A stretch of DNA of 64,000 nucleotides, taken from positions 1 through 64,000 of the forward strand of contig JAKIZM010000003.1 in assembly GCA_022708025.1 (NCBI GenBank). The letters run 5' to 3'. Origin of the DNA: Bacteroidota bacterium (lineage in GTDB: Bacteria > Bacteroidota > Ignavibacteria > Ignavibacteriales > Ignavibacteriaceae). Both the position numbers and the translations under genes were made by a program. The notes beneath the pieces are model-generated. The model saw only the letters and a list, made by a program, of their open reading frames with translations. It was not told where the DNA came from and made no database searches. Positions 17,742-58,332 of the stretch are shown one piece after another. Each line of letters opens with the position of its first letter. Position 1 is the stretch's first letter.

Positions 17742-19424
17742 ATGAGACTGATTTTTAAACCGCTATTTATAATAATAATATTTTTTACGTTTCAAACAAT
17801 CGCACAGATTGAAACTGTTCCGTTAAAAAACAGAGTCTATTTGTTTCTGAAAGAAATGAAAGTTAAAGGTTTATTAGATTTTATCAGAGAAGATGATCCT
17901 CTATTATCAAGATTTGAAGTTAAAAAATTACTTGATCAAATATCCGAAAACAAAACAGATTTAAGTAATACTGAATTAAAGCTTTTAAATAAATATCTGG
18001 TTGAGTTTTCAGAATCAATAAATCCAGATACTACTACGCAATTATTCAATCCACAAAACAGTTTTTTTTCTGATCTGGATCAGATGATTACGAATAAAGA
18101 AAAACACTTGTATGCTTATAAAGAACCCGGCGCAAATATTTATATAGATTTACTCGGGCATTTTTATCACGGTCAGGATTTTTCTCAGACAAGTGCTGTA
18201 AATTCTGATTTATTTGATATTGGTTTTTCAATCAGAGGAACTGTATTTGATCATCTTGGTTATAACATGACTGTAATCAAAGGTGGAGCAGGGGGCGATA
18301 GGGATTTTGCTGAAATAATTGATCCAAGATTGCAGGCTAATTTTAAATGGAGGGAAAATATTGAGAACATTAGTAACTATGATTATACTTATGGCTATCT
18401 GAAATATTATTCAGAGCCGGTTAATGATATGCATCTTTCAGTACAACTTGGCAGAGAAGATATCACACTTGGTTATGGCTATGGAAGCAAACTCGTTTTG
18501 TCTGGTGATAATCCGACAATGGATTTTATAAAATTTAATTTCGATTATGGAATTATCAGTTTCTCTTCAATTCACGCATCAACAAGCGGATATATGACTA
18601 TGGATTTAAATGATCGCTATACAAAATATTTTGCTAACAATCATCTTAAACTAAAATTCAAAAAACTATTTGATGTTGGCATTGGCGAAACAGTTATATA
18701 TTCCGGCAGAGGTATTGATTTCAGCTATCTTGCACCTGTTACTTTTTATAAGTTTATTGAAATGGAAACACAAGATAAAGACAACGGTTTGCTTTACCTG
18801 GATTTACAAACTAAGTTTATTAAAGATTTTGAAATTCAGGCAACTTTTTTATTAGATGAAGATATACTTAGTAACCTTGCGGATCTTGAAAGATACACCA
18901 ATAAAACTGCATATCAATTAGGTGCATTTTGGTATGAACCAATTGGAATTACTGATCTCTCATTAATATTAGAATATACCAGAATCAGACCTTATGTTTA
19001 TACCCATTACGATATTAAGAATAATTATACTGCTTATGGTGTTAATCTTGGGCATAGGATAGGCCCGAATGCTGATGAAATAATGGTTCGTTCAAATTAC
19101 AATTTAAACGAATGGATCAGATTGAATGCTGAATACCGGTTTCAACGCAATGGGAATAATATATATGATGAAAATGGAATATTGATTAAAAATGTTGGTG
19201 GAGATGTTGCATTATCACACGGTTATTCAATTCAAACTGATAGAGCATATTTTTTAGATGGTGAAAGAGTAAATTCCAATTTCTTCAAATTAGGAATTAG
19301 CATCGAACCAATAAGAGGCTTCTTGTTTGATGTATCTTATAATTATTTAAAAAGAGAAAATTTAGCAAAACATACATCATCAAATCAAAATTATGCTTTG
19401 TTTAAGTTTATTCTTGAATATTAA
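17742..19424 (+). CDS. Outer-membrane beta-barrel protein, Wzi-like candidate
   Basis: A 560-residue protein with a signal peptide (FFTFQTIAQ), an N-terminal helical part beginning VPLKNRVYLFLKEMKVKGLL (the pattern seen at the start of Wzi-family capsule-assembly proteins in this phylum), then about 400 residues of alternating aromatic strands and a C-terminus FKFILEY typical of outer-membrane barrels. Wzi in E. coli helps attach group 1 capsule to the surface, but no capsule genes are near. The barrel topology is well supported; the family name is a weaker inference from the N-terminal pattern. It is transcribed alone. Confidence 0.6.
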   Translation: MRLIFKPLFIIIIFFTFQTIAQIETVPLKNRVYLFLKEMKVKGLLDFIREDDPLLSRFEVKKLLDQISENKTDLSNTELKLLNKYLVEFSESINPDTTTQLFNPQNSFFSDLDQMITNKEKHLYAYKEPGANIYIDLLGHFYHGQDFSQTSAVNSDLFDIGFSIRGTVFDHLGYNMTVIKGGAGGDRDFAEIIDPRLQANFKWRENIENISNYDYTYGYLKYYSEPVNDMHLSVQLGREDITLGYGYGSKLVLSGDNPTMDFIKFNFDYGIISFSSIHASTSGYMTMDLNDRYTKYFANNHLKLKFKKLFDVGIGETVIYSGRGIDFSYLAPVTFYKFIEMETQDKDNGLLYLDLQTKFIKDFEIQATFLLDEDILSNLADLERYTNKTAYQLGAFWYEPIGITDLSLILEYTRIRPYVYTHYDIKNNYTAYGVNLGHRIGPNADEIMVRSNYNLNEWIRLNAEYRFQRNGNNIYDENGILIKNVGGDVALSHGYSIQTDRAYFLDGERVNSNFFKLGISIEPIRGFLFDVSYNYLKRENLAKHTSSNQNYALFKFILEY

Positions 19425-19692: not shown

Positions 19693-21690
19693 ATGAAAAA
19701 ATCAGTACTCTTGTTCTTTTTTCTTTTAACTGTTGGAACAATGCTTAGCTTTGCTCAAACAGTTACTGTTACTACGTATGGTGTTTCATCATATGATGTT
19801 GCAATCGATAGTGTTGAACATTATTTTGACAGATCTTATAATGGACTGAGAAATGTTGGCATTGAAACAAAAGTCTTTTTAATAGCTAAGTCAACAGAAG
19901 CTTTTGTTAATCCAACCTGGGAAGTAATTGAAAAGCCAACCGGATCAAATGTTCAGTTTGGCGCTGTTAAAGTAATTGATGCTTCAAAACAGATTATAAC
20001 TTTTATTCCTGATATACAGGGAACTTATAAAGTAAAGTTTACCAGTGGTACCCAGACTGCTGAAATGGTTTTTAATGCTGCACGTTATTTAGGTGTAGAA
20101 GGTGGAACAGTTTCCTGTAAAACTTGTCATCAATATTCGATTGCTGGTCTTCCGGATATTTACAATCCCTGGTCAGCTACAGGCCACGCACTTGATAACA
20201 AAAAAGCTTTCGATGGTGAATTTGGTTTCTTCATTCCTTCTTGTATGCCATGTCATACAACAGGTTTTGATCCAAATGCCAACAATGATGGTTTTGATGA
20301 TTTTCCTTTTGTATTCCCAGCTGTACGTCAACCGGGAGTTTACAATCAATTAGTAGCTCTTTATCCTGAAGCTATGGGCAGATCAAGCATTCAGTGCGAA
20401 GCTTGCCACGGACCCGGAAGTAATCACTTTGCTAATGTTGATAATGCTAAAATAGTAAGTACACTTTCTGCTGATGTTTGTTCTTATTGCCATAAAGGTG
20501 GCGAAGAAAACGATATTCCTTTGCAATATGATCTTTCACTTCATGCTCAAGGAATTCATCAATCTCACGTTCCGAATATTCCGAGTTGTAATCCTTGCCA
20601 CTATGGGAAAGCATACATTAATAAATTAAATGGAGTATCTGGCCCGGTTACTGAAAAAGCTCCGATAACTTGTTCAACTTGTCACGATCCGCACGATGCA
20701 ACTAATACATATCAGCTCAGAACAGTTACAGCTAAATTGGAAAATGGATTAATTGTTGATAATGCCGGAGTTGGTGGCTTATGTATAAGCTGTCATCGTT
20801 CCAGAGCAAATGCAACTCCTTATGTAACTAATTATCTAAAGAATCTTGGTCCATATTTCGGTCCACACGATGGTCCTGAAGGCGATATGCTGATCGGAAC
20901 CAATGGATATACCTGGGGACAAAATATTGATCAATCACCGCACTTTGAAGATGTTGAAAATACCTGCGTTGGTTGTCATATGTATGAAAATGACAATGTT
21001 CTTAATCCGAATTTAAGCGTTGGCGGGCATACATTTAATATGACTAATGCTTTAGGACAAGATAATGTTAAAGCTTGTGTTAATTGCCACGGTAATATTG
21101 GAACAGACTTCGATCAGAAAAAACTTTATATAAATGGTAATGCAGATCTTGATAAAAACGGTGTTGCTGAAGGATTACAAATAGAAGTTGAAGGATTGTT
21201 ACATCAATTAGCACTTTTATTACCTCCTTATGGTTCACCTGTAGTTGGACAAATAGATTCTACCTGGACTCAGGATGAAGCAGGTGCATTGTATAACTAT
21301 AGATTTATTGAACACGATAGAAGTCTTGGAATACATAACCCAAGATTTACAATTGGATTACTTTATTTATCTATCGGAAAATTAGGCGGCACAGTTAGCA
21401 TCGATGATTTGAATTCTGAATTACCAAGTTCTTATACTTTATCAAACAATTATCCTAATCCGTTTAACCCAACAACTACAATTAATTTCTCAATTCCGGA
21501 GCAAACCAATGTTAAAGTTATAATTTATGATGCTCTCGGAAATCAGGTTGATGTAATTACAAACGAAGTTAAACCCGCTGGTAATTATAGTGTTAAATGG
21601 AATGCTGTTAATTATGCTTCCGGAATCTATTTCTACAAACTTGAGACAAATAATTTTGTCCAGGTTCGTAAAATGGTACTTATGAAATAA
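19693..21690 (+). CDS. T9SS-tailed nine-haem c-type cytochrome
   Basis: A 665-residue exported cytochrome. Order: signal peptide (1-21, MLSFAQ), an immunoglobulin-like beta domain (about 25-130), a multihaem region with nine CxxCH sites (Cys142, 184, 235, 263, 299, 327, 364, 425, 462), the HNPRF motif near 548 seen in several multihaem cytochromes, and a type-A sorting domain (584-665; NYPNPFNPTTTINFS to KMVLMK). Haems are attached in the periplasm; the tail then predicts passage through T9SS to the cell surface. This would place a multihaem electron carrier outside the cell. No catalytic site of a known reductase is evident. It is monocistronic, with a terminator after it. Confidence 0.92.
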   Translation: MKKSVLLFFFLLTVGTMLSFAQTVTVTTYGVSSYDVAIDSVEHYFDRSYNGLRNVGIETKVFLIAKSTEAFVNPTWEVIEKPTGSNVQFGAVKVIDASKQIITFIPDIQGTYKVKFTSGTQTAEMVFNAARYLGVEGGTVSCKTCHQYSIAGLPDIYNPWSATGHALDNKKAFDGEFGFFIPSCMPCHTTGFDPNANNDGFDDFPFVFPAVRQPGVYNQLVALYPEAMGRSSIQCEACHGPGSNHFANVDNAKIVSTLSADVCSYCHKGGEENDIPLQYDLSLHAQGIHQSHVPNIPSCNPCHYGKAYINKLNGVSGPVTEKAPITCSTCHDPHDATNTYQLRTVTAKLENGLIVDNAGVGGLCISCHRSRANATPYVTNYLKNLGPYFGPHDGPEGDMLIGTNGYTWGQNIDQSPHFEDVENTCVGCHMYENDNVLNPNLSVGGHTFNMTNALGQDNVKACVNCHGNIGTDFDQKKLYINGNADLDKNGVAEGLQIEVEGLLHQLALLLPPYGSPVVGQIDSTWTQDEAGALYNYRFIEHDRSLGIHNPRFTIGLLYLSIGKLGGTVSIDDLNSELPSSYTLSNNYPNPFNPTTTINFSIPEQTNVKVIIYDALGNQVDVITNEVKPAGNYSVKWNAVNYASGIYFYKLETNNFVQVRKMVLMK

Positions 21691-21727: not shown

Positions 21728-21758
21728 GAGTCCGTTTTCCAACGGACTCTCTCGTTTT
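21728..21758 (+). terminator. Terminator after the nine-haem cytochrome
   Basis: A 9-bp perfect stem GAGTCCGTT (21728-21736) with AACGGACTC (21741-21749) around a TTCC loop, followed by TCTCGTTTT. The T-tract is interrupted but the stem is strong. Confidence 0.75.
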
Positions 21759-50546: not shown

Positions 50547-52043
50547 TTATTCACTTTTCCAGTGACAATCTGTGCAAAGCTGTTTTTCGGTTGCCTGGTC
50601 TAAATCAACAGGATGCTTGAATTCCAATCCATTAAGATCAACACGTGTTACACCATTATTGTCTGTTTGTGCAATAATCTTATGGCAGCTATTACAATCA
50701 TTTGAAATTACTTTACCATCATCACTCACATGATTTCCATCGTGACATCTGAAGCATCCGGGTGTATAAACATGCGAAATATTATTTGGAAAATGTTTCC
50801 AGTCTGCGTTCATATATGTAAAATAGTTTCTGGAATAAATTGCTTTTACAACATCAATGCTTTTAGAAATATTTTCACTTTTTGCTTTGTAAATATCAGG
50901 ATAGTTTGAGATGTAAAAATCATTGATTCTTTGTTGAATGCTTTCTAATGCCTGTTGTTTAGTAAAATATTTATCTTCCAGAACCTCCACAGCAATACTT
51001 TTTATAAAGGGAAGCGATTCATCTATTTGATTACTTGCCATCATTTTGTTCATCATTTTATCAGGTTGATGATAAATATGTGAAGGGCGATTATGACAAT
51101 CGATACAATCCATTGTTCTTAAATTTTGTGGATTAAAATTTTTCTCATCAAAACCGGCTTGTTTGTCTCTGAAAATAGTTTCTTTTCCATCCTTGGTTTT
51201 AACTTTTACCCATGGAATTTCGAGCCTTCTTTCATCAGTATGAATATATGATATTAAATTATCAGCATTTGCATGCCAATGAATTCCTTCGATAGATTCA
51301 AACTTACTTTTTCCACCGCCAATTTTTATCAACATACTAATATTTGATTTTGTATTTTTCTCGTCAGAAAGGTAATAAGTATAATCAACTTTGGTTTCGT
51401 TATAAAAAAGCGAAGGTGTATGACATTGTTCGCAAGTTCCTTCTGCTGGTCTTAATTCTTTAACAGGCGTGCCTATAGGGCGTGAATACTTATTGAAGAT
51501 AACAGAATAAACCTGATAAGCTCCCGAAAACTTGGATTTGACATACCAGCTTGTACCTGAACCGATATGGCAGCCAACACAACCAACTCTTGAATGAGGC
51601 GAATCTAAGTAAGCAGTGTATTCAGGTTCCATTACAGCATGGCAAACTGTTCCGCAAAATTCATCCGACTCGGTATATTCATAAGCTTTGAAACTACCAA
51701 AAGCAGAAAAAAGTAATAATACAATAGTTCCAATTGAAAAAGTTACAAACATTGCCCTTTTCTTCGGATCATTTAAATCAATTACCGGAAGCTTTTGTGA
51801 TCTGTATTTGCCGTGTTTTTCTCTTTTCCTTTCACGAATAATTCCATACGCAATCAACAACAAGCCAACAATAAGAATTGAAGGAAGAATAATGTATGTA
51901 AGAATCCCCATATAAGTGTTTTCTTCACTGCTGAATAAATCCAAAATGAAAAGAAAAACAATCAGTCCAAAACTCAGTAAAGCAATACCAGCGCCGGTAA
52001 GTGTAATTGGATTATAAACATAATGGGGAAATATTTTTCTCAT
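50547..52043 (-). CDS. NapC/NirT-like membrane-anchored seven-haem cytochrome c
   Basis: A 498-residue protein begun at the ATG ending at 52043, which has GAGGAAT upstream (a TTG four codons earlier is the frame start). Three N-terminal membrane helices (about 12-36, 45-69, 97-120) are followed by a periplasmic haem domain. Numbered from the TTG frame start, six CxxCH sites lie at Cys159, 208, 317, 434, 454 and 494, plus a CGTVCH (C-x3-CH) site at 134. The first haem pair, with DSPHSRVGCVGCH, resembles NapC/NrfH quinol dehydrogenases. It probably takes electrons from menaquinol together with the upstream cytochrome b fusion. Confidence 0.88.
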   Translation of the reverse strand: MRKIFPHYVYNPITLTGAGIALLSFGLIVFLFILDLFSSEENTYMGILTYIILPSILIVGLLLIAYGIIRERKREKHGKYRSQKLPVIDLNDPKKRAMFVTFSIGTIVLLLFSAFGSFKAYEYTESDEFCGTVCHAVMEPEYTAYLDSPHSRVGCVGCHIGSGTSWYVKSKFSGAYQVYSVIFNKYSRPIGTPVKELRPAEGTCEQCHTPSLFYNETKVDYTYYLSDEKNTKSNISMLIKIGGGKSKFESIEGIHWHANADNLISYIHTDERRLEIPWVKVKTKDGKETIFRDKQAGFDEKNFNPQNLRTMDCIDCHNRPSHIYHQPDKMMNKMMASNQIDESLPFIKSIAVEVLEDKYFTKQQALESIQQRINDFYISNYPDIYKAKSENISKSIDVVKAIYSRNYFTYMNADWKHFPNNISHVYTPGCFRCHDGNHVSDDGKVISNDCNSCHKIIAQTDNNGVTRVDLNGLEFKHPVDLDQATEKQLCTDCHWKSE

Positions 52044-52120
52044 ATTATTCCTCAATAATAGTTTAAGGAAAACAAATAACGATATCGATATTTAAATTCA
52101 GAATTAAAGTAGAAATAAGA

Positions 52121-54328
52121 TCAAGCGTCCTCTGAACTTTGTTCAGATTTCATTCTTTCTTCAGCTTGTTTCTTTTTGATTCTTTCAAGTTCAAGCGGAT
52201 GCTCTTCCGCCATTTCTTCTTCAGTAATTGTACCTTTGAACCAGGCTAAACTCATCGGATAAATATCGGGATTAAAGATAACAAAGTAGAAATGCCAGAC
52301 AACTATTGCCAAAAATGCCAACCAGGCTTCATAAAAATGAATAGTTCTTGCAATATCCCAATCAAGTTTTGAGAATAAACCGATATAATCAATGTAAAAC
52401 CACATTAATAAACCTGTAACTGACATAACTATTGTTCCCCATACCAGAGCCCAATATTCTGCTTTTTCAACATAACTGAATCTATCTAATTTTGGTTTTA
52501 CCTTTGATAGACCGAGATTATATTTTGCAACTCCTATAGCATCAGTAAAATCTTTAAGAGTAGGGAACAGATCTTTCACTAACTCACGACCTCTTTGTGT
52601 AAATGCAATGTAATAAATATGATATAAGCTCACTGAAATCATCACGACAGCAGCGATTCTGTGTACCCAGCTTCTGTAAACAAAAACATCTGACCAGACA
52701 TCTGTAATATGTGAAACCCACCACGCATTTGGATACCTTAACATAAATCCCGTCAGAACTAAAACTATAAAACTGATTGCCATTATACCATGCTGAATTC
52801 TCTCGTTCAGTGTCATCCTCAAATATAAAGCATGACCATATTCTTCTTCTACGATATGTCCGCGCTGCTTTAATTTCTTAATCTTGGATTTCTTAATCAG
52901 ATCCAGAAAATTGTGTAGGAACATTCCACCAATAACTGAGATAAGTAAAGTAATATAAATATAAGATATCCAGTAAAGGATTGGCTCATCTTCTTTATCC
53001 AGTGTTACGTGAATAGTACCTTTCGTAAAAGTTTCATTTGCACCCGGATGACAAGAACCACAGGTTTTTACAAGATTACCTTTATAAATTGTAGAAGTTG
53101 GATCAGAAGATGGTTTAATATTATGTACACCATGGCAGCTTGCGCAATTTGCTACAGTAGCAGATCCGCCGCTTAATGCTAATCCATGATACGATTCCGA
53201 GAAAGTTTTATATCTGTTAGCAGATAATCCGTATTTTTCAGAGAGTGCAACAGATTCGTGGCAAGGTGAACAAACCTGTCTAGATAAATTCTGAAATGCA
53301 ACCGGTGAATTAGGATCATCAACACGGAGAATATTATGTTCACCATGACAATTAGTACAAGATGGTGCATCACCGTTACCTTTAATAACTAACTGACCAT
53401 GAATACTTTCTAAAAATTCATTCTTAATCGCGCTATGACATTTTCCGCAAGTGTTTGGAATATTTAATCTGTAAACACTTGAACGTGAATCAGTAGGTTT
53501 TAAAATATTATGAGATTCATGACAATCAACACAACTTGCGGCATCTCCGTTTTTATCTCTATTTAATGCCAAACCATGAACGCTTTTATCATAAGCATGA
53601 ATAAAACCGGCAGAAGGAGTTGTTCTGTTCTTTACATCTTCATCATCAAGATGGCAGGATAAACAAAGCTTTTCCTGTGTAATTTTTTTATCAACTTTAT
53701 TTTCACCAAATGCAGATGTTGTTACCGGTGATTTATGACAGGTAATGCAGTTAGGTGCTGATTTATCACCGTTCTTAAAAGCATTGCCGTGGTTTGAAAT
53801 TAAATATTGTTCAGTTGCCTCTTTATGACAACTACCGCAGGAAGTTATTAAGTTGTTTTGATTCCATTTACTCTTTGAATTTTTAATACTAATAACATCG
53901 TGGATACCGTGACAGTTTTTACAAGATGTATCAGGTGATTTTCCATTACCTAAAGATTTAATAATCTGAGGATGAAATGAATGCTTAGTAAGATCTTTCT
54001 GATGACAACTGATGCATTTAACCTCCTGAATATTTTCTGCATGCGGCATTGCCTCAGGATCGAAACCTTTATGACACGATACACAGCTTAATTTTGAGTG
54101 AGAAGAGCTTTTGAAAATATTTTCATCAACAAAAAGGGAAATTACCTTTCCCTTCTTTTCCATAGTGAGTTCATTATCACTATGGCACATTAAACAGTCA
54201 TCATTCGATTGAGCATATATTTTTGAGGGTAAAATAACTAATCCGATTACAAGGAGGGTTTGTATTATATTTAAGATGTTTGGGAAGCATCTTATTTTTT
54301 TCTCGTTTGATGATGATTTAAGTGCCAT
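52121..54328 (-). CDS. 13-haem cytochrome c fused to a cytochrome b561-type membrane domain
   Basis: A 735-residue protein with a signal peptide (to KIYAQ) and thirteen CxxCH sites (Cys45, 82, 105, 136, 164, 194, 222, 266, 294, 324, 353, 395, 423), followed from about 450 by a membrane domain like the formate-dehydrogenase gamma/cytochrome b561 family (RIQHGIMAISFIVLVLTG, SWVHRIAAVVMISVSLYHIYY, TIHFYEAWLAFLAIVVWHFYF), whose His residues would bind two b haems. Recurrent HGLAL-type motifs could give distal haem ligands. The layout recalls Geobacter CbcL, a menaquinol oxidase feeding extracellular electron transfer, though homology was not tested. Second gene of the cytochrome operon. Confidence 0.9.
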   Translation of the reverse strand: MALKSSSNEKKIRCFPNILNIIQTLLVIGLVILPSKIYAQSNDDCLMCHSDNELTMEKKGKVISLFVDENIFKSSSHSKLSCVSCHKGFDPEAMPHAENIQEVKCISCHQKDLTKHSFHPQIIKSLGNGKSPDTSCKNCHGIHDVISIKNSKSKWNQNNLITSCGSCHKEATEQYLISNHGNAFKNGDKSAPNCITCHKSPVTTSAFGENKVDKKITQEKLCLSCHLDDEDVKNRTTPSAGFIHAYDKSVHGLALNRDKNGDAASCVDCHESHNILKPTDSRSSVYRLNIPNTCGKCHSAIKNEFLESIHGQLVIKGNGDAPSCTNCHGEHNILRVDDPNSPVAFQNLSRQVCSPCHESVALSEKYGLSANRYKTFSESYHGLALSGGSATVANCASCHGVHNIKPSSDPTSTIYKGNLVKTCGSCHPGANETFTKGTIHVTLDKEDEPILYWISYIYITLLISVIGGMFLHNFLDLIKKSKIKKLKQRGHIVEEEYGHALYLRMTLNERIQHGIMAISFIVLVLTGFMLRYPNAWWVSHITDVWSDVFVYRSWVHRIAAVVMISVSLYHIYYIAFTQRGRELVKDLFPTLKDFTDAIGVAKYNLGLSKVKPKLDRFSYVEKAEYWALVWGTIVMSVTGLLMWFYIDYIGLFSKLDWDIARTIHFYEAWLAFLAIVVWHFYFVIFNPDIYPMSLAWFKGTITEEEMAEEHPLELERIKKKQAEERMKSEQSSEDA

Positions 54329-54349
54329 AGTTGATAAACTTAAACCTGA

Positions 54350-54691
54350 TTATTCTCCTTTAAGTGTTAATAACCAGGTAACTAATACTTTAAGATCTTC
54401 GTCAGTTCCTTTAAAAGATGATTTATGATCTTTATCGTTTAACTTAGCTTCTTTTTTCAAATATTTTGTTAAAAACTCGGCTGTATTATCTTTTCCAACT
54501 GAAGAAAGATCAGAAGCATCCGATTTCTTTGATTCTATACCAACAGATTTAACGGTGTGGCACATTTGACATTTATTATCAGTAAAAACCTTTTTGCCAT
54601 CGCCATCAGCTTGATCGGCTACTACATAAGCAAAACCATACAAAGCTACTATTGTTATAATTAAACCAAAATATACTAATATGTTCTTCAT
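54350..54691 (-). CDS. Small monohaem c-type cytochrome
   Basis: A 113-residue protein with an uncleaved or cleaved N-terminal hydrophobic segment (VYFGLIITIVALYGFAYVVA), one CxxCH (CQMCH) and a C-terminal helix ending TWLLTLKGE typical of class I cytochromes; a Met ligand is not obvious in the expected position. It would shuttle electrons in the periplasm. First gene of the operon, 21 bases upstream of the 13-haem fusion. Confidence 0.85.
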   Translation of the reverse strand: MKNILVYFGLIITIVALYGFAYVVADQADGDGKKVFTDNKCQMCHTVKSVGIESKKSDASDLSSVGKDNTAEFLTKYLKKEAKLNDKDHKSSFKGTDEDLKVLVTWLLTLKGE

Positions 54692-55539: not shown

Positions 55540-56895
55540 TTAGATTTTTATGTCTAATTCCTTCAATTTTCTATAAAGTGTGGATAAACCAACCTTTAAA
55601 GCATCTGCAGTTTTTTCTTTATTATTTTCATTATTTTCAAGTGCACGCAGAATAAAATCTCTTTCAAATTTTCTAACTGATTCATCAAGTGAGCCGTTAA
55701 ATGAGAAATCGTATTCATCAGCTTTTGGCTTAAAAGAAGCAGGCAGTTCCTGTATTGTTATCATATCGCCCTTACAAAAGATTACTGCTCTTTCAATAAT
55801 ATTTTCGAGTTCACGAACTTCACCTTTCCATTCGTGATTAAGAATTGCTCTCATTGCTTCATTATCAATTCCTTTAATGTTTTTGTTTAACTCTTTTCTA
55901 TATTTATCAAGGAAGTGATCTGCTAATAAAGGAATATCTTCTTCACGCTCTTTTAATGATGGAAGGTGAATATCTACAACATTAATTCTGTAATATAAAT
56001 CCTCCCTGAATCTGCCGGCTTTAACTTCTTCTTCCAGATTACGATTAGTTGTGGTAATGAATCTTGCATTTACCGGCAATGAAATAGTTGTACCAACAGG
56101 TGTGTATTCTTTTTCCTGAATTGCTCTGAGAAGTTTAACTTGTAATTGTGGCGGCATTTCACTTATTTCATCAAGAAATAAAGTACCGCCGTTAGCAGCT
56201 TTCATATAACCTTCTTTATCAGAAATAGCTCCTGTAAAAGCACCTTTTTTATGTCCGAATAATTCACTTTCAATAAGGTTTTCTGAGATAGCTCCGCAAT
56301 TAACAGCAATAAATGGTTTATTTTTTCTGTGACTTTTATAATGAAGAGCACGCGCAACTAATTCTTTTCCTGTACCGCTGTTTCCGCTGATTAATACAGT
56401 TGAATCTGTTTCCGCAACAGCTTCAATCATTTCATAAACTTTTTTGATGCTGGCACTTTTACCAACAATATTTTCGAAATCATATTTCCTGTGAATCTCT
56501 TCACGGAGGATCTTATTTTCGCTTAACAGATCTTTAACTTCAAAAAGCCGCTGCACTTTTATTAATAATTCATCAAATTCCACAGGTTTTAAAATATAAT
56601 CACTTGCGCCGTTTCTTAAAGCGCTGATAGCTGTATCCAAAGAACCAAAAGCTGTAATAATTATTACTGAAGTTTGAAAATTTATAGTTTTAATTTTTTC
56701 AAGGAGTTCAGTTCCTTTCATTAAAGGCATTTCAATATCGGTTATAACTAAATCGAAGTGATTATCTAAAATTTTTTCATAAGCAGTTTTACCATTTTCA
56801 GCTTTATCTACCAGATAACCTTCTTTTTCAAGAATGTAGAATAAAGAATCCCTGATTATTTCTTCGTCGTCAACAACTAAAATTTTATATGCCAT
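55540..56895 (-). CDS. NtrC-family sigma-54-dependent response regulator
   Basis: A 451-residue transcription activator: receiver domain (1-120; Asp10/Glu11, phospho-Asp53, Lys103), AAA+ domain (about 142-385) with Walker A GNSGTGKE (171-178), the GAFTGA sigma-54 contact loop (218-223) and a Walker B in GGTLFLDEI, then a Fis-type helix-turn-helix (about 420-448, NKEKTADALKVGLSTLYRKL). Activates sigma-54 promoters when phosphorylated. The cognate kinase gene ends 12 bases upstream. Target genes are not known; the nearby cytochromes are possible targets. Confidence 0.95.
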   Translation of the reverse strand: MAYKILVVDDEEIIRDSLFYILEKEGYLVDKAENGKTAYEKILDNHFDLVITDIEMPLMKGTELLEKIKTINFQTSVIIITAFGSLDTAISALRNGASDYILKPVEFDELLIKVQRLFEVKDLLSENKILREEIHRKYDFENIVGKSASIKKVYEMIEAVAETDSTVLISGNSGTGKELVARALHYKSHRKNKPFIAVNCGAISENLIESELFGHKKGAFTGAISDKEGYMKAANGGTLFLDEISEMPPQLQVKLLRAIQEKEYTPVGTTISLPVNARFITTTNRNLEEEVKAGRFREDLYYRINVVDIHLPSLKEREEDIPLLADHFLDKYRKELNKNIKGIDNEAMRAILNHEWKGEVRELENIIERAVIFCKGDMITIQELPASFKPKADEYDFSFNGSLDESVRKFERDFILRALENNENNKEKTADALKVGLSTLYRKLKELDIKI

Positions 56896-56907
56896 TTTTA
56901 TCCTAAA

Positions 56908-58332
56908 TTAATTAATAGGTAACTTTATTATAAATGATGTTCCTTCATTTAATTTACTTTTTATTTTTATATCTCCCTGAAAACTTTTTACAATTCCATA
57001 ACTTACCCATAAACCTAAACCGGTACCTTTTCCTTCAGTTTTGGAAGTAAAAAACGGTTCAAATACTTTATTTAATTTATCTTCTTTGATTCCGATCCCA
57101 GTATCGGAAAAGGTCAACGTAACTTCGTTGTCGGTGCTTTCAGATTTCACTGAGATCTTCTCAATCTTACTATTTCTTTTTTTCTCAATAATAGCATCAA
57201 CAGAGTTTAACAGAATATTAACGAACACTTGTTGTATCTGGTCCGATATCAAAGGTAACAATGGTATGTTTGGACTTAAATTTGTTTCGAATATTATGTT
57301 CTGAGCTTTAGTACCAACCTTGGTTATTTCAACAGCTTCTTTAATTACCAGATTTATATCAGTCAGTTCTAATTCATAATTCGATGGTCTGGAAAAATCA
57401 ACAAGGTCTCGTATAATTTTAGATATTCTTGTAATCTGGCTTTTCACCAAATCTAACTTTTCATTTACAAAAGGATCGGTGGAAATTCTTTGTGCAACTT
57501 GTACCAAAGCTGAAATAGAAGCTAAAGGATTTCCAACTTCGTGTGCAATACCTGCAGCCAACGTTCCAATGCTTTCCATCTTTTGAGTGTGGATTAACTG
57601 CCTTTCTAAAGTTCTTTTTTCAGTCAGATCGCGATGAATTCCAAAATATCCTGATACCTTTCCATCTTTATCCAGAATAGGGGAAACAAGCAACTGAGTA
57701 AAAAACGGTTCACCATCTTTCTTAAGGTTTTCAACTTCACCGACCCAGACTTTACCACTGGAAACTGTATCCCACATTTTATCCCAAAACTTAGCAGAAT
57801 TTTTTCCACTGGCTAATATGCTGGGATTTCTGCCAATCAATTCATCTTTAGAATATCCGCTTGCAGTTTCGAAAGCCTTATTAACATAAATCATTTTACC
57901 GTTCAGATCAGTTATTTGTAAAGGATTAACAGTATTTTCTGCAACATTAAAAAACCTGATAAGGTCCATCTCTTTCTTTTTCTCTTCACTTATATCCCTT
58001 GCAGTTACAAGCGTCAGTCTTTCTTTGAATTCCTGACTTTTAAAAGGCACAAAAGAAAGTTTTACGTTGATGAAATTCTTTTTAAAAAACAGTCTGGTTT
58101 CAATCTCTTCAGGTTTTCCAAGGTTTAATGATTTATTAAACAGGTTTTGTGTTTCATTTCTATCACACAACTCAACATAATCAAAAAGGATGTCGGTCTT
58201 ACCATTTAAGATTTCTAATTTTTCACTCGATGCTTTATTATAAAATCTGATATCTCCCTTATCGTTAATTAAAAAACACATATCAGGGAATCCATCAAAC
58301 AGAGAAAAATCTAATGTGATATTTTTATTCAT
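56908..58332 (-). CDS. Soluble PAS-domain sensor histidine kinase
   Basis: A 474-residue kinase with no membrane segment: two PAS domains (about 8-118 and 124-238; the second ends GYFGIHRDLTEKR), a HisKA domain with phospho-acceptor His264 (AGIAHEVGNPLASI) and an ATPase domain with N-box LLNSVDAI and G-boxes DTGIGIKEDK and GKGTGLGLWVSYGI. NtrB-like arrangement: it would sense an intracellular signal, perhaps redox or a small ligand, and phosphorylate the NtrC-type regulator encoded 12 bases downstream. Confidence 0.94.
   Translation of the reverse strand: MNKNITLDFSLFDGFPDMCFLINDKGDIRFYNKASSEKLEILNGKTDILFDYVELCDRNETQNLFNKSLNLGKPEEIETRLFFKKNFINVKLSFVPFKSQEFKERLTLVTARDISEEKKKEMDLIRFFNVAENTVNPLQITDLNGKMIYVNKAFETASGYSKDELIGRNPSILASGKNSAKFWDKMWDTVSSGKVWVGEVENLKKDGEPFFTQLLVSPILDKDGKVSGYFGIHRDLTEKRTLERQLIHTQKMESIGTLAAGIAHEVGNPLASISALVQVAQRISTDPFVNEKLDLVKSQITRISKIIRDLVDFSRPSNYELELTDINLVIKEAVEITKVGTKAQNIIFETNLSPNIPLLPLISDQIQQVFVNILLNSVDAIIEKKRNSKIEKISVKSESTDNEVTLTFSDTGIGIKEDKLNKVFEPFFTSKTEGKGTGLGLWVSYGIVKSFQGDIKIKSKLNEGTSFIIKLPIN

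What the first reader, a model, noticed from the sequence alone, without database searches (positions are those of the whole stretch)
19693..21690. Nine-haem cytochrome predicted to be delivered to the cell surface by T9SS
Nine CxxCH motifs and a complete type-A sorting domain are on one chain, with an Ig-like domain in front. Secreting a folded, haem-loaded protein through T9SS would offer a way to place electron carriers outside the cell without a porin-cytochrome conduit of the Mtr type.
Basis: partly seen in the sequence, partly recalled or inferred. Interest (0 to 1): 0.7.

Follow-up and report, generated by a model that had tools for sequence, protein, structure and literature searches.

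The report
Nine-haem surface cytochrome with T9SS tail
The gene encodes a nine-haem electron-carrying protein with the tail that the type IX secretion system recognises; relatives sit in operons with a porin-cytochrome wire through the outer membrane, so it is probably the outer end of such a wire and not a replacement for one.

Summary
ORF 19693-21690 (665 aa) has nine CxxCH, all 18 of its Cys inside them, a signal peptide, an Ig-like domain and a type-A T9SS tail above the Pfam and NCBIfam cut-offs. The genome has PorU, PorV and SprA and at least 150 such tails. All nine haem motifs and eight further His are at least 96% conserved in 90 homologues, and nearly all homologues in the class keep the tail.

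The haem core is c554-like in front and NrfA-like behind. Its closest solved relatives are OcwA and a Carboxydothermus-type cytochrome, both surface Fe(III) reductases.

The same genome carries an Ignavibacterium-type pcc cluster (4-haem, porin-like, 14-haem, 6-haem). In ten relatives from six genera the T9SS nonahaem gene stands at the head of that cluster. The window also has a CbcL-like and an NrfH-like inner-membrane cytochrome gene.

Best reading: an OcwA-like terminal cytochrome delivered by T9SS to the outer face, fed by a conventional pcc conduit. I found no paper on T9SS-tailed multihaem cytochromes in the library held. Secretion, haem loading and electron transfer are untested.

The parts
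19693..21690 (+). T9SS-tailed nonahaem c-type cytochrome, 665 aa
   Evidence: homologues in all genomes of the genus and most of the order
19693..19758 (+). predicted Sec signal peptide, residues 1-22 (..SFAQ)
   Evidence: Read from the sequence; helix 3-15 in the model
19849..20082 (+). Ig-like beta domain, residues 53-130
   Evidence: AlphaFold pLDDT about 90; Ig/filamin-type matches in the PDB
20116..20493 (+). haems 1-4 (CxxCH at residues 142, 184, 235, 263), cytochrome c554-like half
   Evidence: PF13435 weak on the window protein (below cut-off), above cut-off in homologues; c554 1bvb in the profile search
20587..21387 (+). haems 5-9 (CxxCH at residues 299, 327, 364, 425, 462) and the three-helix bundle, NrfA-like half
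   Evidence: Profile matches to NrfA at query 414-571; PF02335 in homologues; predicted helices 491-509, 527-541, 550-565
21451..21678 (+). type-A T9SS sorting domain, residues 587-662
   Evidence: PF18962 and TIGR04183 above cut-off; seven-strand sandwich, pLDDT about 95
21728..21749 (+). terminator-like hairpin 37 bp after the stop codon; suggests the gene ends its own transcript
   Evidence: consensus match; 2 found against 1.6 expected in shuffles, so weak
52121..54328 (-). candidate upstream partner: CbcL-like 13-haem cytochrome c with a cytochrome b561-type membrane domain, 735 aa
   Evidence: link to the nonahaem protein is inference only
50547..52055 (-). candidate upstream partner: NrfH/NapC-like membrane cytochrome, 502 aa, 6 CxxCH plus one CxxxCH
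   Evidence: link is inference only
54350..54691 (-). small monohaem cytochrome c beside the CbcL-like gene, 113 aa

Best explanation
The gene encodes an extracellular nonahaem cytochrome of the OcwA/NrfA-c554 kind. The protein enters the periplasm by Sec, receives nine c-type haems there, and is then moved across the outer membrane by the type IX system through its C-terminal domain, which PorU is expected to cut or exchange so that the protein stays on the cell surface. There it accepts electrons that have crossed the outer membrane through a separate, conventional porin-cytochrome (pcc) complex and passes them to an outside acceptor such as Fe(III) oxide, an electrode or another cell. T9SS thus does the job that lipoprotein export does for MtrC or OmcB; it does not replace the conduit. 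Shown here: the domains, their conservation, the T9SS genes, the pcc cluster in the same genome and the shared operon in relatives. Inferred: haem loading, secretion, cleavage, contact with the pcc complex and the acceptor.
For: Nine CxxCH invariant and eight further His at least 96% conserved in 90 homologues. Tail above cut-offs, T9SS genes present. PDB profile search: OcwA 6i5b 2.2e-29 and 6qvm 1.8e-25, then NrfA, octahaem nitrite reductases, MccA and c554; OcwA is a nonahaem cell-surface reductase made of a c554-like and an NrfA-like haem group (PMC6703420). Own genome: c554-like 4-haem, 421-aa barrel, 400-aa 14-haem, 311-aa 6-haem genes in a row, matching the published I. album pcc cluster, whose periplasmic cytochrome also has 400 aa and 14 haems (PMC4245776). 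In G008, G015, G021, G028, G032, G035, G048, G052 and G059 the order is T9SS nonahaem, c554-like, barrel, 14-haem, 6-haem (G015 is cut by the contig end within the barrel); in G010 the same without the c554-like gene. These lie in two separate clades of the tree. In L068 the homologue reads as a lipoprotein with no T9SS tail and sits beside relatives of the pcc cytochromes, so the anchor appears to be exchangeable.
Against: The window gene itself is not in the pcc cluster (that is on contig C28), and in the window's own clade of 36 sequences I saw no pcc linkage. The barrel has no Pfam, NCBIfam or PDB match, so its porin nature rests on position and on the published I. album case. The pcc cluster already has its own 6-haem putative outer cytochrome. 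The haem core of the AlphaFold model is low confidence. No export or redox data exist.
Confidence: 0.62

Rival explanations
1. One reading: T9SS placement lets the cell do without a porin-cytochrome conduit, the electrons reaching the protein by soluble shuttles or by loading before export.
For: In the window's own clade the gene stands alone or beside a paralogue, with no pcc neighbours. A few relatives that match the nonahaem core lack a detectable pcc barrel, for example G027 and G040, though G040 and G027 are fragmented assemblies.
Against: The own genome and 86 of the other relatives have the pcc barrel and ten have both in one cluster. T9SS moves protein, not a sustained electron flow.
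Confidence: 0.1
2. A surface enzyme of the NrfA/octahaem type that reduces nitrite, hydroxylamine or another small molecule outside the cell, with electron transfer to minerals secondary or absent.
For: The NrfA-like half and three-helix bundle. Only eight conserved extra His for nine haems, so at least one haem probably has an open site, haem 2 by analogy with c554 and OcwA. OcwA reduces nitrite and hydroxylamine slowly (PMC6703420).
Against: The His-His pair that lies over haem 2 in OcwA aligns with GTHH-type residues in many relatives but with GEEN in the window protein and two close relatives, and no CxxCK motif of NrfA is present. The operon partners are a conduit, not a small-molecule system.
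Confidence: 0.17
3. The tail is a vestige or is not used, and the protein works in the periplasm or stays at the inner face of the outer membrane.
For: No secretion data.
Against: Strong conservation of the tail down to the terminal lysine across the order, and score in the middle of the at least 150 tails of this genome.
Confidence: 0.07
4. The partner barrel is the Wzi-like protein encoded just upstream (17742-19424), forming a new porin-cytochrome pair.
For: Adjacent and co-directional in the window and in G001, G002, G003 and G004.
Against: Absent next to the gene in G005 of the same genus and everywhere outside the genus; Wzi is a capsule-surface protein family; 268 bp gap; no periplasmic cytochrome beside it.
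Confidence: 0.04

Closest known systems
OcwA of Thermincola potens (PDB 6i5b; PMC6703420)
   Same: Nine c-type haems in the same order, c554-like front and NrfA-like back, C-terminal helix bundle, predicted surface position; best profile match in the PDB (2.2e-29)
   Different: OcwA is from a Gram-positive cell and has no Ig-like domain and no T9SS tail; its beta-sheet insert at residues 75-156 has no counterpart in the short haem 1 to haem 2 stretch here; its His-His pair at haem 2 is absent in the window protein
6qvm 'Multiheme cytochrome cf', by length and name probably OmhA of Carboxydothermus ferrireducens (PMC7829351)
   Same: Profile alignment over nearly the whole haem region (1.8e-25); surface cytochrome of a Fe(III) reducer
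   Different: 681 aa; OmhA has eleven haem motifs and is from a Gram-positive host; the identification of 6qvm with OmhA is my inference
Ignavibacterium album pcc cluster IALB_1840 to IALB_1837 (PMC4245776)
   Same: The own genome's cluster on contig C28 has the same order and a periplasmic 14-haem protein of the same length (400 aa)
   Different: The published cluster is described without a T9SS-tailed nonahaem member; I compared by description, not by sequence
MtrC / OmcB type outer-membrane cytochromes
   Same: Role as outer cytochrome above a porin-cytochrome conduit; PF22113 match above cut-off
   Different: MtrC and OmcB are lipoproteins (background knowledge); this one has a T9SS tail, and its haem core resembles OcwA/NrfA more
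T9SS type-A cargo proteins
   Same: Sec signal, C-terminal beta-sandwich domain, PorU/PorV/SprA in the genome
   Different: Known type-A cargo are mostly proteases, glycosidases and adhesins (background knowledge); a multihaem cytochrome cargo was not found in the papers searched

Membership tests
T9SS type-A cargo | C-terminal domain of PF18962 / TIGR04183 at the very end of the protein | tested here: met
   40.4 and 42.3 bits, above both cut-offs, residues 587-662 of 665
T9SS type-A cargo | T9SS machinery in the genome | tested here: met
   PorU 952 bits, PorV 315 bits beside it, SprA 1029 bits; PorK, L, M, N not searched
T9SS type-A cargo | N-terminal Sec signal peptide | tested here: inconclusive
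   Clear by eye (MKKSVLLFFFLLTVGTMLSFAQ); no predictor available
T9SS type-A cargo | Actual export and tail removal | not testable with these tools
   Needs fractionation of wild type and T9SS mutants
OcwA-type nonahaem surface reductase | Nine haems, c554-like then NrfA-like halves with helix bundle | tested here: met
OcwA-type nonahaem surface reductase | His-His pairs over open haems 2 and 5 | tested here: not met
   GEEN at the haem 2 position; no pair at the place aligned with OcwA HH380/381; relatives keep GTHH at haem 2 in part
OcwA-type nonahaem surface reductase | Inserted beta-sheet domain (residues 75-156 of OcwA) | tested here: not met
   Only 42 residues separate the first two haem motifs here
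Outer cytochrome of a pcc/Mtr complex | Gene in a cluster with porin and periplasmic multihaem cytochrome | tested here: not met
   Not met at the window locus (contig C55 against C28); met in ten relatives for homologues
Outer cytochrome of a pcc/Mtr complex | Lipoprotein anchor | tested here: not met
   No Cys outside the CxxCH motifs
NrfA nitrite reductase | CxxCK catalytic haem motif and five haems | tested here: not met
   All 18 Cys are in nine CxxCH motifs
MtrC/MtrF family | PF22113 domain | tested here: inconclusive
   54.8 bits, cut-off 30, but the model also rings on an unrelated 14-haem protein of the genome (34.8 bits)

The most novel reading that the evidence does not exclude
In Ignavibacteria the type IX system is the regular export route for the outer, haem-loaded subunit of porin-cytochrome electron conduits: a folded nonahaem protein passes through SprA and docks on a pcc complex, so that a secretion system otherwise known for hydrolases and adhesins builds the respiratory cell surface.
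Probability: 0.5. Interest if true: 0.78.

Novelty: new variant of a known kind. Interest (0 to 1): 0.6.

Why it matters
How outer cytochromes reach the cell surface is known mainly for lipoproteins of Proteobacteria and Geobacter. A T9SS-tailed nonahaem protein sharing an operon with a pcc conduit would be a second route, would show that T9SS can move a multi-cofactor holoprotein, and would give Ignavibacteria, often found on anodes and in iron-rich settings, a testable terminal reductase. The operon arrangement in ten genomes makes the test concrete.

Tried and rejected
Structure of the haem core by AlphaFold: only 25 sequences could be used and the core came out below pLDDT 50, so Foldseek on the full model found only Ig-type domains and was not used for the core. 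The genome-contig scan was dominated by the common tail motif, so most of the 80 loci share only the sorting domain. Wzi-like barrel as the conduit: rejected on synteny. Identification of the porin by family or PDB profile: no match. Further T9SS-tailed multihaem genes in the own genome: comparing the PF14522 and PF18962 hit lists gave none besides the window gene, but the CxxCH pattern list was truncated and PF14522 misses some cytochromes. Literature: no paper in the held library has 'multiheme cytochrome' with T9SS or 'multi-heme' with type IX secretion system; subscription papers and preprints are not covered.

Full report
Observation. The ORF at 19693-21690 encodes 665 residues with nine CxxCH motifs and no other cysteine. 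Shuffling the same residues gives at most one such motif in 20,000 trials. The last 79 residues are a type-A T9SS sorting domain by Pfam and NCBIfam and fold confidently as a seven-strand sandwich. Residues 53-130 form a separate confident beta domain with Ig-type relatives.

The organism. The genome holds at least 150 T9SS tails, PorU with PorV next to it on contig C35, and SprA on C27. Judging by identical coordinates, the same-genus genome G003 is the record titled Ignavibacteriales bacterium UBA8501, so the window comes from an ignavibacterial genus; this is an inference.

Conservation. The protein was found in every genome of the genus and at high score across the order. In a sample of 296 genomes of the phylum, 47 have the cytochrome core and 44 of these lie in the same class. 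In 90 homologues the nine haem histidines and eight further histidines (165, 245, 284, 334, 392, 417, 446, 548) are at least 96% conserved and no other His is. Eight candidate distal ligands for nine haems leave at least one haem probably open; by analogy with cytochrome c554 and OcwA this would be haem 2. Not a proof, since Met or another residue may serve.

What the core is. A profile built from the window protein and distant homologues finds OcwA (2.2e-29) and 6qvm (1.8e-25) first, then NrfA, octahaem nitrite reductases, MccA and c554. OcwA is a nonahaem cell-surface reductase whose haems 1-4 superpose on c554 and 5-9 on NrfA (PMC6703420). The same two halves show up in homologues as PF13435 and PF02335, and the three helices of the NrfA-type bundle are predicted. 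Two OcwA traits fail: the His-His pair at haem 2 is GEEN here (it is GTHH or similar in many relatives), and the inserted beta domain between haems 1 and 2 is missing. I therefore say it works like OcwA and shares its core, without filing it as an OcwA.

The conduit. Contig C28 of the same genome carries, in one direction, a c554-like 4-haem gene, a 421-aa gene with no cysteine motif and a barrel-like sequence, a 400-aa gene with 14 CxxCH and a 311-aa gene with six CxxCH and a lipobox-like start. This is the layout published for the pcc cluster of Ignavibacterium album, IALB_1840 to IALB_1837, where the periplasmic cytochrome has 400 residues and 14 haems (PMC4245776); pcc porins are also reported from other Ignavibacteria (PMC7399161; PMC6137239). 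The barrel is found in 87 of 97 relatives.

The operon. In nine relatives a T9SS-tailed nonahaem gene stands directly before c554-like, barrel, 14-haem and 6-haem genes (in G015 the contig ends within the barrel), and in a tenth (G010) directly before the barrel. They come from six genera of the window's family. Eight belong to a clade without the Ig-like domain and two to an Ig-bearing clade, so the linkage appears in two places of the tree. Outside the class, the homologue in L068 reads as a lipoprotein with a collagen-like linker and no T9SS tail, and its neighbours include relatives of the 4-haem, 14-haem and 6-haem proteins. The surface anchor thus looks exchangeable while the cytochrome and its company stay.

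Limits. The window gene is not in the pcc cluster of its own genome, and its own clade shows no such linkage; its role is carried over from relatives. Its clade is otherwise made mostly of another family (f2), which suggests transfer or old paralogy; not tested further. The gene seems to be its own transcript: 268 bp before it and a hairpin with a T run after it, although that scan is weak.

Electron supply. In the window itself, on the minus strand, lie a 13-haem protein with a cytochrome b561-type membrane part (CbcL-like), an NrfH/NapC-like membrane cytochrome and a monohaem cytochrome. They would suit the step from quinol to periplasm, but nothing ties them to the nonahaem gene except the genome.

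Conclusion. Most likely this is the surface end of a pcc-type electron conduit, delivered by T9SS. Tail, core, T9SS genes and operon linkage in relatives are shown by sequence. Secretion, haem loading, docking and acceptor are inferred. No paper on T9SS-tailed multihaem cytochromes was found in the library searched, which is not the whole literature.

Noticed in passing
window 50547-54691 (-): CbcL-like 13-haem cytochrome with a b561-type domain, NrfH/NapC-like cytochrome and monohaem c in a row; a sigma-54 regulator and sensor kinase (55540-58332) lie upstream on the same strand.
   Followed up: partly
window 17742-19424 (+): Wzi-like outer-membrane protein directly before the cytochrome in most genomes of the genus, absent there in G005 (L172).
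   Followed up: partly
window residues 270-273 of the 665-aa protein (20500-20511): The GTHH motif over the haem 2 pocket in many relatives is GEEN in the window protein and its two closest relatives, as if a substrate pocket had been lost.
   Followed up: partly
L144 13045-14082 (contig C28): A PorV-family protein is encoded on the opposite strand next to the pcc cluster; 13 PorV-family proteins score over the cut-off in the genome.
   Followed up: no
L066 7836-11825 (Sumerlaeota): A 1330-aa protein with two tandem copies of the nonahaem core and no T9SS tail.
   Followed up: no
L065 7920-12414: Two tandem tail-less homologues that end in TSP3-type repeats instead of a T9SS domain.
   Followed up: no
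L231 5592-8285: In G007 an 898-aa gene with 18 CxxCH lies next to the T9SS nonahaem gene.
   Followed up: no
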